NCBI GenBank assembly: GCA_031262565.1
Contig: JAISHL010000045.1
Location: 1-9,430 of the forward strand
Reading direction: 5' to 3'
DNA length: 9,430 nucleotides
DNA from: Candidatus Nomurabacteria bacterium
GTDB taxonomy: Bacteria > Patescibacteriota > Saccharimonadia > Saccharimonadales > Saccharimonadaceae
Shown here: positions 2,799 through 9,430 of the stretch, in pieces
Position numbering within the stretch: the stretch's first letter is position 1
Layout of the letters: every line of letters begins with the position of its first letter
Position numbers and translations under genes: made by a program
The notes under the pieces: model-generated
Told to the model about the DNA's origin: nothing
Databases searched by the model: none
What the model saw: the letters and a program-made list of their open reading frames with translations, nothing else

Positions 2799-5756
2799 TT
2801 ACAATACGGTTTTTAGATATCTACCTGTCGCTGACTTTGGATTTTTCGCGATATCTTCTGGTGTGCCACTTGCGACGATATAACCGCCATTCAAGCCGCC
2901 GTCTGGACCGAGGTCAATGATATTGTCGGCGCATTTGATTACGTCCAAATTGTGTTCAATGACGACCATGGAATTGCCCGCCGCGACCAGTTGCTGTAAA
3001 ACCGATAATAATTTTCGCACGTCCGCTGGGTGCAAGCCAGTCGTCGGCTCATCCAAGACATACAAAGTTTTACCTGTCGCCCGTCGCGATAATTCCGTTG
3101 CCAGTTTGATTCGCTGGGCTTCACCGCCCGAGAAAGTTGTGGCTGGTTGACCGAGCGTGATATAACCAAGTCCGACTTCTTTCAAAGTTTCGAGTTTGCG
3201 CGCAATGGCTGGGATTGGCGCGAAAAAGTCCGCCGCTTCGTCAACCGTCATATTCAAAACTTCGCTAATATTTCGTTCGCGCCACTTAATTTCCAACGCC
3301 TCGCGGTTATAGCGCGCGCCACCACATTCGCTACAAGTCACATAAACATCAGGCAAAAAATGCATTTCAAGTTTAATCCCGCCGTCGCCCTGACAATTTT
3401 CACAGCGTCCGCCACGCACATTAAAACTAAACCGCCCAGATTTATAACCGCGAATATTTGCCTCTGGCGTCGCGGCAAATAGATCGCGAATGTTGGTGAA
3501 AATTCCTGTGTAAGTTGCTGGATTTGAGCGTGGTGTGCGACCGATTGGCGACTGGTCGATCGTGATAATTTTGTCCAAATTTTCAATGCCGTCGATCGCT
3601 TTGTGCGAGCCAGCCACGTCGTGCGATCGGTTTAATCGCGCGGACAATTCTTTACTCAAAATATCATTCACCAGCGTCGATTTTCCTGATCCTGAAACGC
3701 CCGAAACCACATTCAAAACGCCAAGCGGAAAAACCGCGTCAATATTTTTCAAGTTGTGTTCGTTGGCTCCGCGGACGACTAGTTGACGTTTTGGATCGAG
3801 CGGACGACGCTTTTTTGGCACGGGGATTTTTTCCGTTCCAGAGAGGAATCTGCCCGTTATTGAATCTGGATTTTTAGCAACTTCGGCGGGTGTTCCTGCG
3901 GCGATCACATAGCCACCTTTCACGCCAGCCTCTGGTCCGATATCCAGCAAATAATCCGCCTCGCGAATCGTATCTTCATCATGTTCAACAACCAAAACCG
4001 TATTTCCGAGGTCGCGCAAATGTTTCAACGTTACAATCAAACGATCATTATCTCGCTGATGCAAGCCGATTGACGGCTCGTCCAAAACATATAAAACGCC
4101 TTGTAATCCCGAGCCAATTTGCGTCGCCAAGCGAATGCGCTGAGCTTCACCGCCAGACAAAGTATTTGCCGCGCGCCCAAGCTCCAAATAATTCAGTCCA
4201 ACATCTTTCATAAATGTCAGACGGTCGTTAATTTCCTTAAAAATCTGCTTGCCGATAAACATTTCTTGTTCAGACCATTTGATCTTTGAGAAAATATCCA
4301 GCGCGTCGTCCACCGATAAATTACAAACATCAACAATTGACAAATCATGCACCGTTACCGCCTGAACGACTGGCTTTAAACGCGTGCCGTGGCAAGTCGT
4401 GCATTCGCGCTCGCGCATGAATCGCTCAATATCTTTGCGCATAAACTCGCTATCGGTTTCTTTCCAACGACGCTCCAAATTCGGAATCACGCCCTCATAA
4501 GTCGTGTTGTAAACGCGCCCGTTTTCGCCCCATTTTGCATGGTTGCCGATGTTGACTTCATAAGTTTCATTGCCCGTGCCATAAAGAATCGCATTTCGCT
4601 GTTCGTCGGTCAAATCTTTGGCGAGTGTGCGCAGGGTAAAACCGAATTTTTCGCCGACTTTGGCTAATTTTTTCATCCACCAAGCGTCGACGTTGACGCG
4701 GTTGAATGGTCGAATTGCGCCTTCGGAGATTGTTAAGTTGGAGTTCAAAACGAGTTCTGGGTCGACTTCTAGTCTTGCGCCGAGTCCCATGCAGGTTGGA
4801 CAAGCGCCGAACGGGGCATTGAAAGAGAAGAGTCGCGGTTCGAGTTCGGGAATTACTTCGTCGAGGTGATCAACACAGACGTAACGGGTGGAGAACGTGA
4901 CGACTTTTACCGCACTACTTTCGCGCACCACTCCTTCACGCCCGTCGTTACGGGGTTCAGTCATTGACGCTGATGTCGTAACATCAGAGTCTGCACGAGA
5001 AGTAGTCGCAGCTCCGTCGTTATTGATTATTATAATTTCCATACTCCCCCCGCCAATCTCTATCGCCGATTCCACAGACTGCGTAATGCGCGACACAGAA
5101 TCTGGGGAAATTACCAATCGGTCAACGATCAGTTCGATGTCGTGCTTGAAGTTTTTGTCCAGCGTTGGCCATTCGTCCAGCGCATAAATCACGCTGTCAA
5201 CTCTGGCGCGCGCAAAACCTTTCGCCATAAATTGCTCGGGAATATGCGCAAATTCACCCTTTTTCTGTTTGGCGATTGGTGCGCCGATATAAACTCGCGC
5301 TCCGTCCAGCTTCATAATTTCGTCAACGATATGCTGAGCGCTACGTTTTTCCACAACTTTTCCACAGATTGGACAGTGGGGAATGCCGACGCGTGCGAAT
5401 AACAAGCGCAAATAATCGTAAATCTCGGTAACAGTGGCGACGGTCGAGCGCGGATTGCGACTGGCGGATTTTTGATCAATCGAAATAGCTGGCGACAATC
5501 CGTCAATCTGGTCAACGTCGGGCTTTTCCATTTGTCCCAAGAACTGGCGCGCATAACTCGACAAACTTTCCACATAACGGCGTTGTCCCTCGGCGTAAAT
5601 CGTGTCAAAAGCCAGCGACGACTTGCCAGATCCCGACAAACCAGTGATCACCACCAACTTATCGCGCGGAATGTCCACGTCAATATTCTTCAAGTTGTGC
5701 TTGCGTGCGCCACGAACCCGAATAAATCCACTGCCAGTTTTGTAATTATCATTCAT
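2799..5756 (-). CDS. uvrA: UvrA, excinuclease ABC subunit A (with in-frame insertion)
   Basis: 985 residues from ATG 5756, against about 940 in E. coli. UvrA is the dimeric ABC-type ATPase that finds bulky DNA lesions and loads UvrB. Visible in order: Walker [10 protein letters not shown] (39-47); the UvrB-binding and signature-I region; a first zinc finger C294-x2-H297...C319-x2-C322, in which the usual second Cys is His; signature LSGGEAQR (about 533-540) and [10 protein letters not shown]; second Walker [10 protein letters not shown] (about 686); second zinc finger CENC...CSEC (about 784-811); FSGGEAQR (about 873) and [10 protein letters not shown]. The extra length comes largely from residues about 243-286, a hydrophilic insertion encoded by palindromic DNA. 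A TTG 30 nt upstream (5786) is in frame, but the ATG is preferred: the promoter-like box lies between the two and the conserved N-terminus ([15 protein letters not shown]) begins just after it. There is no Shine-Dalgarno. It is monocistronic here; uvrB and uvrC are not in the window. Confidence 0.96.
4900..5022. repeat. Cloverleaf-like palindromic insertion inside uvrA
   Basis: About 123 nt encoding roughly residues 245-286 of UvrA, a region absent from E. coli UvrA. It contains two hairpins with near-identical 4-nt loops. One is CCCGT-CGTT-ACGGG (4941-4954). The other has an 11-bp stem with one mismatch around TGATGT-CGTA-ACATCA (4966-4991). Both are enclosed by imperfect arms: 4912-4927 matches the complement of 4992-5009, including ACTACTT/AAGTAGT. 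Short ACGAC/GTCGT matches (4900-4904 and 5016-5020) extend the arms. The whole could fold as a three-way junction. The 9-mer CCGTCGTTA occurs at 4942-4950 and 5014-5022. It keeps the uvrA frame open. It is interpreted as a degenerate coding-region palindromic element; no second copy exists in the window to prove it is a repeat. Confidence 0.5.
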
Positions 5757-5766
5757 AAACTTGAAT

Positions 5767-5775
5767 ATTTTAGCA
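5767..5775 (-). promoter_or_regulatory. Extended -10 promoter of uvrA
   Basis: Minus-strand TGCTAAAAT (5775 to 5767) is the same extended -10 as at sufS. Ten nucleotides separate it from the ATG at 5756, so the predicted transcript has a leader of only about 4 nt. No clear -35 or SOS (LexA) operator is visible nearby. This box lies downstream of the alternative TTG at 5786, which argues against that start. Confidence 0.52.
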
Positions 5776-5862
5776 TATTTTACCAAATTTTTCCATACCC
5801 TTGGTTTTTCATTCCACCTATTGCTAAACTCTTTTACATAAGCGCATAAGAGGTTTATGATG

Positions 5863-8013: not shown

Positions 8014-9430
8014 ATGAGTAAAACTTTTAAACACGGCACGCGGCGTAAGGCGATCGAATATGAGAAAGCCCTCGTCGAATATTGGAAGAAAAATCGGACG
8101 TTTGAGAAGTCGGTCGAGCAGCGCGACCCAGCGAACAGTTACGTTTTTTATGACGGTCCACCGTTCATTACGGGTTTGCCACATCATGGGACATTGCTCA
8201 GTTCGATCGTGAAAGACTGCATTCCGCGTTATCAAACTATGCGTGGCAAACGCGTTGAAAGGCGGTGGGGTTGGGATTGTCACGGATTGCCAGCGGAGAA
8301 TTTTGTTGAAAAGCAGCTCGGTATTACGGATCGGCGTGACATTGGCACGAAAATCAGCCTCGAAGAATATATCACCAAGGCGCGCGAATCGATGGTGGCG
8401 AACAGTGAGATGTGGGAGAGCACGATCGACCGCGTGGGGCGTTGGGTGGATTTCAAAGGCGCGTATCGCACGATGGACAAGGATTTTATGGAGAGCGTTT
8501 GGTGGGCGTTCAAAAAACTTTACGATGCGGGCAAAATTTATGAGGGCGAAAAAGTTTTGATGTATGACACAAAATTCGCCACGCCAGTCAGTAAAAACGA
8601 AGTGACGATGGACAATGACGCGTATCAGACGGTGACTGATCCGAGTGTTTATGTGAAGTTCAAGATGAAAAAGCCAATTGTTAGTTTTGTCATGGGGATT
8701 AATGATGCGGAAAAAGACCTGCAAAAAATTGGCGTTAAAATTGTAGAGAAATATCCAAAAGCGCTCGATTATGATTGTTATGGCGTTGAGATTCCGCGCG
8801 AATCGCTAGAAAAATTTGAGGAGTATATTTCCGAAAAAATCGCACCTGAATTTTTTAATGAATATATTGATAATGGAAAAATCACTTTTACATTTAAGAC
8901 GGCAGATGGTAAGATTGAGAAATATTTTTGGAGTGAAGAAAATCATGGTGACGAGCCAAAAATCGCTGAGTTGGTGAAAAAATTCACAGGCTCGTATAGT
9001 GGCGTGCGAAATATGATTGAAAATAATAAATTCTACGGGTCTGATATTTTTACGCCGACGTATTTTTTGGCGTGGACAACGACGCCGTGGACACTACCAG
9101 CGAATACAGCATTGGCGGTGAATCCTGAGATGAAATATGTTGAGGTTGAAGTTAAAAATTCTGTCATTGCGAGCGGAGCGAAGCAATCTAGTGTGAATGA
9201 TACGGATTGCCACGGCGATGAATCGCCTCGCAATGACGATAGAGAGCGTTTTATCTTGGCGAAGAGTTTGGTTGAAAAAGTTTTGACGGACGAAAAAAAT
9301 CAGCTTTTGGAATATAAAGTTTCGCGAGAAATTGATGGCGCGGAATTGGTCGGAGAAGATTATGAACCAATAATGGAACAGTCTGATCAAGAGCTCATGC
9401 TAAACCACTCATATGTAGAATATGGAAAAG
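8014..9430 (+). CDS. ileS: Isoleucyl-tRNA synthetase, N-terminal half (runs off window)
   Basis: 472 codons are present and open to the right edge. Class I synthetase charging tRNA-Ile. N-terminal landmarks resemble type 2 (eukaryote-like) IleRS: PPFITGLPHHGTLLSSIVKD around residues 49-68, RRWGWDCHGLPAE (about 83-95), GRWVDF (about 141-146) and SVWWAFKKLYD (about 158-168). The class signature HxGH reads HHGT, so the last His is replaced by Thr. The CP1 editing domain begins with DPSVYVKF and has the threonine-rich editing motif WTTTPWTLPANTA (354-366). Two in-frame additions are visible: residues about 221-349, AT-rich and unlike known IleRS, and residues 384-408, encoded by a 75-bp palindromic repeat. 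GAGGAG (8002-8007), 6 nt before the ATG, sets the start. It is the last visible gene of the T-box operon and the expected target of the isoleucine T-box. The KMSKS motif lies beyond the window. Confidence 0.95.
   Translation, partial: MSKTFKHGTRRKAIEYEKALVEYWKKNRTFEKSVEQRDPANSYVFYDGPPFITGLPHHGTLLSSIVKDCIPRYQTMRGKRVERRWGWDCHGLPAENFVEKQLGITDRRDIGTKISLEEYITKARESMVANSEMWESTIDRVGRWVDFKGAYRTMDKDFMESVWWAFKKLYDAGKIYEGEKVLMYDTKFATPVSKNEVTMDNDAYQTVTDPSVYVKFKMKKPIVSFVMGINDAEKDLQKIGVKIVEKYPKALDYDCYGVEIPRESLEKFEEYISEKIAPEFFNEYIDNGKITFTFKTADGKIEKYFWSEENHGDEPKIAELVKKFTGSYSGVRNMIENNKFYGSDIFTPTYFLAWTTTPWTLPANTALAVNPEMKYVEVEVKNSVIASGAKQSSVNDTDCHGDESPRNDDRERFILAKSLVEKVLTDEKNQLLEYKVSREIDGAELVGEDYEPIMEQSDQELMLNHSYVEYGK
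8674..9060 (+). other. ileS: AT-rich insertion domain inside ileS (residues about 221-349)
   Basis: In IleRS the segment DPSVYVKF is normally followed within about 12 residues by the LAWTTTPWTLP strand. Here about 128 residues separate them, so roughly 115-120 are extra. Composition shifts: G+C is 15/60 at 8821-8880 and 19/60 at 8881-8940, against 31/60 at 8281-8340. The predicted protein is charged and mostly helical, with a beta segment KITFTFKTADGKIEKYFW (289-306). I recognise no domain family. Both edges remain in frame and the editing motif downstream is intact, so the enzyme is presumably functional. It could be a lineage-specific insertion or an acquired domain. Confidence 0.6.
9163..9237. 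repeat. 75-bp palindromic repeat (RPE/MITE-like) inserted in frame in ileS
   Basis: The element has perfect 11-bp terminal inverted repeats, GTCATTGCGAG (9163-9173) and CTCGCAATGAC (9227-9237). A second inverted pair, GCAATC (9183-9188) and GATTGC (9205-9210), flanks a central loop. The sequence GTCATTGCGAG...GAAGCAATC...GATTGCCACG...CTCGCAATGAC is the widespread intergenic palindrome seen in Rickettsia, Wolbachia and many other bacteria. Here it starts and ends exactly on codon boundaries (25 codons, residues 384-408), between a conserved NPEMKYVEVEV strand and RFILAKSLVEK. The encoded peptide is polar and includes SGAKQSS and PRND. Confidence 0.9.

What the first reader, a model, noticed from the sequence alone, without database searches (positions are those of the whole stretch)
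9163..9237. Selfish palindromic repeat turned into 25 codons of isoleucyl-tRNA synthetase
A 75-bp palindrome with perfect 11-bp terminal inverted repeats lies inside ileS, exactly in codon phase, and adds residues 384-408 in the CP1 editing domain without any stop. This parallels the Rickettsia palindromic elements reported inside protein-coding genes, but the repeat core (GTCATTGCGAG...GCAATC) is the common intergenic type, and the host here is an essential synthetase in what looks like a CPR genome. The site is between two conserved strands, so the peptide should form a surface loop. It is a clean example of a mobile repeat creating protein sequence.
Basis: partly seen in the sequence, partly recalled or inferred. 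Interest (0 to 1): 0.78.

Follow-up and report, generated by a model that had tools for sequence, protein, structure and literature searches.

The report
Palindromic repeat captured inside isoleucyl-tRNA synthetase
A short, likely mobile DNA repeat sits in frame inside the isoleucyl-tRNA synthetase gene of a Saccharibacteria genome, where it would add a floppy 25-amino-acid loop to the enzyme, and 29 further copies were found in frame inside reading frames, mostly of core genes, of this genome and four relatives.

Summary
Window 9163-9237 is a 75-bp inverted repeat with perfect 11-bp ends, in codon phase, encoding IleRS residues 384-408. It is a real repeat: 39 matches in the 588-kb genome, and 45 exact GTCATTGCGAG against 0 for the reversed pattern. 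None of 108 other aligned IleRS rows has it. AlphaFold2 puts the peptide in a coil (387-404, pLDDT <50) between two well-predicted CP1 strands.

The case is not isolated. In fetched stretches of five Saccharibacteria genomes, 30 of 63 paired copies lie in frame inside ORFs: pheT, recJ, lepA, gatA/B, cysS, obgE and others. recJ has it at one site in three genera but not in a congener. That pheT site and this IleRS turn are occupied by other repeat families in relatives. Among genic copies of 3n length, 23 of 24 use one phase, which argues that the peptide is translated.

It works like Rickettsia RPEs and intragenic CGTC-type REPs: a new member of a known kind, here in Patescibacteria. Mobilising enzyme not identified; translation not measured.

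The parts
8014..9429 (+). ileS, N-terminal 472 codons; the contig ends inside the gene
   Evidence: (PF00133, E 2e-55); C-terminal part not found elsewhere in the assembly
9163..9237 (+). 75-bp paired palindromic element (REPIN-like dimer), read in frame as residues 384-408
9163..9173 (+). left terminal inverted repeat GTCATTGCGAG (tag TGTC with the preceding T)
9227..9237 (+). right terminal inverted repeat CTCGCAATGAC (tag CGTC on the other strand with the following G)
9163..9188 (+). repeat unit A (GTCATTGCGAG....GCGAAGCAATC), also found alone
   Evidence: (matches to query 1-31)
9205..9237 (-). repeat unit B, also found alone
   Evidence: matches to query 43-75
9133..9156 (+). codons of predicted CP1 strand 374-381, before the insert
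9241..9261 (+). codons of predicted CP1 strand 410-416, after the insert
4896..5012 (-). copy of a different repeat family, in frame inside uvrA (ORF 2799-5786 minus), with weak hairpin potential; the same family sits in pheT of the congener at the site where this genome's pheT carries the 9163-type element
   Evidence: z -1.90, 9 of 200 shuffles as good, for 4903-5002

Best explanation
The 75 bp are an inverted pair of short palindromic repeats of a family scattered through this Saccharibacteria genome, lying in frame in ileS where they are predicted to be translated as a disordered 25-residue loop in a turn of the CP1 editing domain, most likely after insertion as a non-autonomous mobile element that was kept because the protein tolerates it. 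Shown: the repeat family, the in-frame position, its absence from the orthologues examined, and recurrent in-frame capture in other genes at the same sites in different species. Inferred: copies insert widely (mobilising enzyme unknown), most genic hits are lost because they shift the frame or bring a stop, and survivors are those of 3n length in the VIAS...RND phase at exposed turns. Translation of the insert is inferred from the open frame and the phase bias, not measured.
For: Repeat family: 39 matches; exact 11-mer 45 against 0 control. Absence elsewhere: 0 of 108 other aligned IleRS rows carry the peptide; 88 of 109 rows have an 11-residue segment where the window has 39; 0 of the 115 proteins covering the site among 120 listed hits. 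In-frame capture: 63 paired copies examined in fetched stretches of G000, G001, G020, G021 and G028; 30 in frame in ORFs (19 with at least 100 codons open on both sides; the window's own copy is not among the 19 because the contig ends), 8 with open flanks but not in frame, 25 other. 26 of the 28 other host ORFs match named families. Recurrent sites: recJ in G000, G020 and G021, absent from 22 of 25 rows including the congener G001; pheT in G000 and G020; lepA in two species and the ileS C-terminal region in two species. Peptide-level filter: of genic copies with 3n length, 23 of 24 read VIA...RND although the alternative phase is nearly as often stop-free in non-genic copies (32 against 26 open readings; p 1.5e-5, copies treated as independent). 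Structure: coil of pLDDT <50 at 387-404 between strands 374-381 and 410-416.
Against: No transposase of the REP-associated type (PF01797) was found in the window's genome, which is 71% complete; such genes occur in 3 of 6 repeat-bearing and 15 of 55 other genomes searched (Fisher p 0.35). In G020 and G001 the gene lies about 3.5 and 9 kb from the nearest listed copy, and no copy is listed on its contig in G021. No target-site duplication was evident by eye and no same-species empty site was available; the relatives are different species. The AlphaFold model is of a truncated protein (mean pLDDT 64.7). Enrichment of 3n length in genic copies (24 of 30 against 19 of 33) is only suggestive (p 0.065), and non-genic copies also lean to 3n (19 of 33, p 0.005; 14 of 28, p 0.07 without one cluster).
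Confidence: 0.85

Rival explanations
1. Insertion is targeted: the recurring sites (recJ, pheT, lepA, the IleRS turn) are DNA hot spots, for instance structured or single-stranded replication-fork targets, so the coincidence of sites comes from the mobilising enzyme and not from protein tolerance.
For: Same-site hits in different genera and by different repeat families. A pyrimidine stands before the left end in 60 of 63 copies (T 39, C 21) and a purine after the right end in 55 of 63; this could be a target preference, but is as well explained by the element's own TGTC/CGTC tag.
Against: Different families share the sites, as does a 182-residue piece with a hydrolase match in the congener, which points to the protein loop. 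The junctions differ by a few codons between species, and the strong phase bias needs a protein-level filter.
Confidence: 0.15
2. The peptide has been co-opted and now does something for IleRS, such as tuning CP1 movement or a contact.
For: It is carried by an essential enzyme; other Saccharibacteria have folded enzyme-like domains in the same part of IleRS.
Against: Only the window's species has this peptide there among 109 rows; it is predicted disordered; much the same peptide appears in unrelated proteins as a plain consequence of the repeat.
Confidence: 0.07
3. The 75 bp are not translated: the ribosome hops over the hairpin or the RNA is processed.
For: Strong hairpin; removal would spare the enzyme.
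Against: No in-frame stop; 23 of 24 genic copies of 3n length share one phase, which would not matter if the insert were skipped.
Confidence: 0.04
4. Assembly artefact: a repeat wrongly joined into ileS in a metagenome-assembled contig.
For: Fragmented 89-contig assembly with many copies of the repeat; the contig ends 193 bases after the insert.
Against: The reading frame continues on both sides into conserved IleRS sequence, and the in-frame pattern recurs in 29 other places in five different assemblies.
Confidence: 0.02

Closest known systems
Rickettsia palindromic elements, especially RPE-4/6/7 (PMC3767692: passages and section 12 read)
   Same: Palindromic repeats inside genes without breaking the frame; ATGAC motif; encoded segments modelled as solvent-exposed; different RPE groups in the same gene of different species; isoleucyl-tRNA synthetase and the PheT beta subunit are on the R. 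japonica list.
   Different: Different phylum. The list gives insert lengths of 68-192 bp; here 75 bp. Whether the Rickettsia IleRS insert is at this turn was not tested.
CGTC-tagged REPs and intragenic REP dimers (PMC3733652: passages and section 15 read; figures with the consensus not held)
   Same: CGTC/TGTC tags at the outer ends, stem beginning AT, dimers, intragenic inserts of which more than half are dimers or groups encoding 20-30 amino acids, many in DNA-repair genes and some in tRNA synthetases; the paper equates R. conorii RPE-6 and RPE-4 with CGTC-1 and CGTC-4.
   Different: The words candidate division, CPR and TM7 do not occur in its main text. Most REPs there are intergenic; here 30 of 63 examined pairs are in frame in ORFs.
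REPINs mobilised by RAYTs (PMC3116915: passages read)
   Same: Inverted pair of short palindromes as the unit, with single units as likely remnants.
   Different: REPINs are described as extragenic and linked to a RAYT gene; neither holds for the copies examined here.
In-frame MITE fusions such as ERIC, YPAL and the Neisseria 107-bp element (PMC2229807: passages read)
   Same: Small inverted-repeat elements with an open frame fused into proteins.
   Different: About 100-200 bp, mostly with target-site duplications and TA ends; neither seen here.

Membership tests
CGTC-tagged REP (dimer) | CGTC or TGTC motif at one end of each unit | tested here: met
   TGTC at 9162-9165; CGTC at 9235-9238 on the other strand. 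Across 63 pairs the left end is preceded by T or C in 60
CGTC-tagged REP (dimer) | stem beginning with AT | tested here: met
   ATTGC...GCAAT in unit A
CGTC-tagged REP (dimer) | 8-9 bp stem with 4-5 bp loop and CCA tail | tested here: inconclusive
   Stem of unit A is interrupted by mismatches; tail is CTA in the window, CCA in some other copies; published consensus figure not available
CGTC-tagged REP (dimer) | multi-copy in the genome, with inverted dimers | tested here: met
   39 matches; 10 pairs in G000 among the fetched contigs
Rickettsia palindromic element | in frame inside conserved genes without breaking them | tested here: met
Rickettsia palindromic element | encoded peptide on the protein surface | tested here: inconclusive
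   predicted disordered loop between two strands; no experimental structure
Rickettsia palindromic element | Rickettsia-specific repeat family | tested here: not met
   Saccharibacteria genome. Not compared base by base with RPE sequences
REPIN/RAYT system | two inverted REPs forming a hairpin | tested here: met
   z -3.62
REPIN/RAYT system | cognate RAYT gene flanked by the repeat | tested here: not met
   No PF01797 match in G000 (71% complete); in G020 and G001 the gene is kilobases from the nearest listed copy; none listed on its contig in G021
REPIN/RAYT system | extragenic placement | tested here: not met
   30 of 63 pairs in frame in ORFs
MITE | target-site duplication | tested here: inconclusive
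   Eight-base flanks printed for 63 pairs show no evident duplication by eye; no same-species empty site

The most novel reading that the evidence does not exclude
A lineage of Saccharibacteria carries at least three different short repeat families, two of them clearly palindromic, that are repeatedly written into its proteins at the same permissive loops, with element length and phase tuned to be translated: a population of selfish DNA adapted to live inside essential genes of a reduced genome, convergent with Rickettsia down to the same hosts (IleRS, PheT, Uvr proteins).
Probability: 0.35. Interest if true: 0.7.

Novelty: new member of a known kind. Interest (0 to 1): 0.5.

Why it matters
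Protein-coding palindromes are best known from Rickettsiales. Finding them in number in a candidate phylum of reduced genomes, in core genes, at sites reused by different repeat families, gives an independent replicate of the phenomenon. It lets one test whether the pattern comes from target choice, from relaxed selection in reduced genomes, or from repeats evolved to be translatable. It also warns annotators that VIASxAKQS...RND-type peptides in predicted proteins can be genuine coding sequence.

Tried and rejected
Gene fusion by the element: in this genome one copy lies between the RNase HII and YraN parts of one ORF, but 19 of the 21 family relatives with an RNase HII match have an open frame of 312-421 residues, long enough for both parts, so the element only sits in a linker.

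RAYT mobilisation: PF01797 presence does not track the repeat (3 of 6 against 15 of 55 genomes). The enzyme stays unknown.

Remnants of the repeat at the edges of the domain inserted at the same IleRS turn in the congener: only a 9-base inverted match and a 6-base AATGAC, taken as chance.

Third family as a palindrome: the uvrA copy folds only weakly better than shuffles (z -1.90, 9 of 200 as good) and its best inverted arms are 11 bases with one mismatch, so I call it a repeat family, not a palindrome. Of its five longer copies in relatives (L313-L317), four are spanned by a frame with the TEPRNDGREGVV reading; in L317 the best spanning frame is on the other strand and reads differently; L318 and L319 are partial.

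Plasmid collection: 31 bases of unit A match two records of Methylosinus trichosporium OB3b only, so plasmids gave no lead.

Literature: the exact motif GTCATTGCGAG as text gave 8 papers, unrelated by title. Listings for Saccharibacteria + palindromic, Candidate Phyla Radiation + palindromic + repetitive + protein-coding and Patescibacteria + palindromic repeat showed no paper on protein-coding palindromes in this phylum; I saw the listed titles and abstract starts only (20 of 26, 1 of 1, 20 of 35), and passages of one (PMC11257099), where the palindromic hits were CRISPR. PMC186582 is not held. Ogata 2000/2002/2005 and Abergel 2006 are known to me here only through papers that cite them.

Limits of the survey: only the stretches fetched were classified. 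G004 was not fetched, only one of G028's 5 matches was, and a few copies in G001, G020 and G021 were left out. The match counts are lower bounds (at most 15 candidates scored per genome). The in-ORF classification needs open flanks of at least 60/50 codons, so some of the 30 may not be real genes (2 of 28 ORFs matched no family), and one, in priA of G021, lies beyond the matched domain. Row L148 dropped out of the IleRS alignment and L050/L120 carry the same segment. At the pheT site G003, G009 and G018 have other long segments that I did not analyse.

Full report
What is there. The window is a whole contig (C28) of an 89-contig, 71%-complete genome. Of the 80 loci kept from an IleRS search of named genomes, most are titled Candidatus Saccharibacteria, so the CPR guess is right. 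The ileS ORF starts at 8014 and runs off the contig end; the rest of the gene was not found in the assembly. At 9163-9237 lies a 75-bp inverted repeat with perfect 11-bp ends in codon phase, giving residues 384-408. As single-stranded DNA it folds better than all 200 shuffles.

It is a repeat. The 75 bp match 39 places in the genome at E<=1e-3; many are matches to one of two units alone, A (1-31) or B (43-75). The exact 11-mer occurs 45 times in this genome and the reversed control pattern not at all. Among 61 genomes, 6 have the element by the 75-bp search: the window's own, its only congener in the set and four others of the family. In a wider sample of the phylum, which did not include those other carriers, 27 of 286 genomes have the 26-base unit-A pattern: the window's genome with 18 copies and 26 others with one to four.

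It is an insertion. In 109 aligned IleRS rows the segment that is 39 residues in the window is 11 residues in 88 rows and 7-13 in 101; the window alone has this peptide. The solved IleRS chain 9wqs aligns on both sides of the site with four residues between the aligned parts, where the window has 31. Among the 120 listed hits of a protein search (of 5375), 115 cover the site and none matches the repeat-peptide patterns tried. AlphaFold2 gives strands at 374-381 and 410-416 (ten-residue mean pLDDT 95 and 93) and a coil below 50 at 387-404; the model as a whole is weak because the protein is cut off.

The same turn takes other things. In L153 the turn holds RHSELDSES...LDSRVKPENDK, encoded by a repeat of another family (GTCATTCTGAAC type) whose outer ends GTCATTCT/AGAATGAC are inverted. 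In the congener G001 (same segment as L120) it holds 182 extra residues that include a Pfam serine-hydrolase match (E 2e-5). In L117 it holds 39 extra residues.

The same repeat is in many core genes. I fetched stretches around most copies in G000, G001, G020 and G021 and one in G028 and paired the outward ends (at most one mismatch each, 45-110 bp). Of 63 pairs, 30 lie in frame in ORFs with open flanks of at least 60/50 codons, 19 of them with at least 100 on both sides; 8 have open flanks but are out of frame; 25 are neither. In G000 the split is 6, 0 and 4. The 30 copies lie in 29 ORFs. Of the 28 other than the window's, 26 match NCBIfam families: IleRS, PheT, RecJ (three species), a ClpB-type ATPase, RNase HII-YraN, a RecD-like helicase, GatA, GatB, transketolase, LepA, YchF, Tgt, CysS, RecG, NifS, SufS, RsmA, RlmD, PriA and ObgE. 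Many of these matches are below the curated cut-off, in part because ORFs are cut by contig or locus ends. Single units also sit in frame in leuS, lepA and exonuclease I of the window's genome.

Sites recur. In recJ the element lies between VQALQ and GQEKWLL in G000, G020 and G021, in two different phases, while 22 of 25 rows, including the congener G001, have no such insert. In pheT the site after the EF..P motif holds this element in G000 and G020, and another repeat family in the congener G001; three further rows have long segments there that I did not analyse. LepA (two species) and the IleRS C-terminal region (two species) show the same recurrence. The family in G001's pheT also lies in this very window, in frame in uvrA on the minus strand at 4896-5012. 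It has 1 match in G000, 6 in G001 and 2 in G020 among 41 genomes. Four of its five longer copies in relatives share the TEPRNDGREGVV reading in long ORFs. Its hairpin potential is weak.

Evidence that the peptide is made. For copies of 3n length, two phases are about equally free of stops in non-genic copies (32 and 26 open readings), yet 23 of 24 genic copies use the VIA...RND phase (p 1.5e-5, copies counted as independent). The disfavoured phase ends in a LAMT-type reading. Skipping at the RNA or ribosome level would not care about phase. A non-genic copy dropped at random would keep the frame in 58 of 198 strand-phase combinations, whereas 30 of the 38 pairs with open flanks are in frame; that contrast leans on an ORF-based definition of 'genic' and is supportive only. 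The 3n-length enrichment itself is weak (p 0.065).

What it is. By anatomy it is an inverted dimer of REP-like units with CGTC/TGTC tags: the left end is preceded by T or C in 60 of 63 pairs. The text of PMC3733652 describes such CGTC repeats, says that R. conorii RPE-6 and RPE-4 belong to them, and that more than half of intragenic inserts are dimers or groups encoding 20-30 residues. PMC3767692 lists RPE-7 in isoleucyl-tRNA synthetase and PheT beta of R. japonica and notes the ATGAC motif, which this element shares. So it works like an RPE and is best filed as an intragenic CGTC-type REP dimer, with the published consensus not checked. How it moves is open: no PF01797 gene in G000, no link in the others.

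Verdict. Observation confirmed, reading supported, kind known, host lineage and density new as far as the listed searches show.

Noticed in passing
window 4896-5012 (minus), inside uvrA 2799-5786: In-frame copy of a third repeat family (GAATTSRADSDVTTSASMTEPRNDGREGVVRESS). In relatives four of five longer copies lie in long ORFs with the same TEPRNDGREGVV reading, one of them pheT.
   Followed up: partly
window 8668-9057 (IleRS residues 219-348): A second, much larger insert in IleRS, confidently folded in the AlphaFold2 model (ten-residue means 81-96), with 16 residues or fewer at this place in 26 of 29 relatives; no Pfam match.
   Followed up: partly
L050, L063, L065, L233, P0018, P0020: IleRS of other Saccharibacteria carries whole enzyme-like domains inside the chain: serine hydrolase, NUDIX, low-molecular-weight phosphatase and GNAT acetyltransferase. 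An unusual habit of domain accretion in one synthetase.
   Followed up: partly
L097 2755 and 3583; L098 2913; L099 6509; L100 730: A second palindromic family (GTCATYCTGAAC, peptide HPELVSGS...) is also in frame in genes of the window's genome: RNase HII-YraN, leuS, exonuclease I and lepA.
   Followed up: partly
L221 (G020 C16, about 3.6-8.3 kb): Four 72-bp copies within 5 kb, two of them between open frames that do not join, perhaps ends of neighbouring genes.
   Followed up: no
L211 (G020 pheT): One pheT gene holds three copies of the element at three sites, one of them about 135 bp by its reading.
   Followed up: partly
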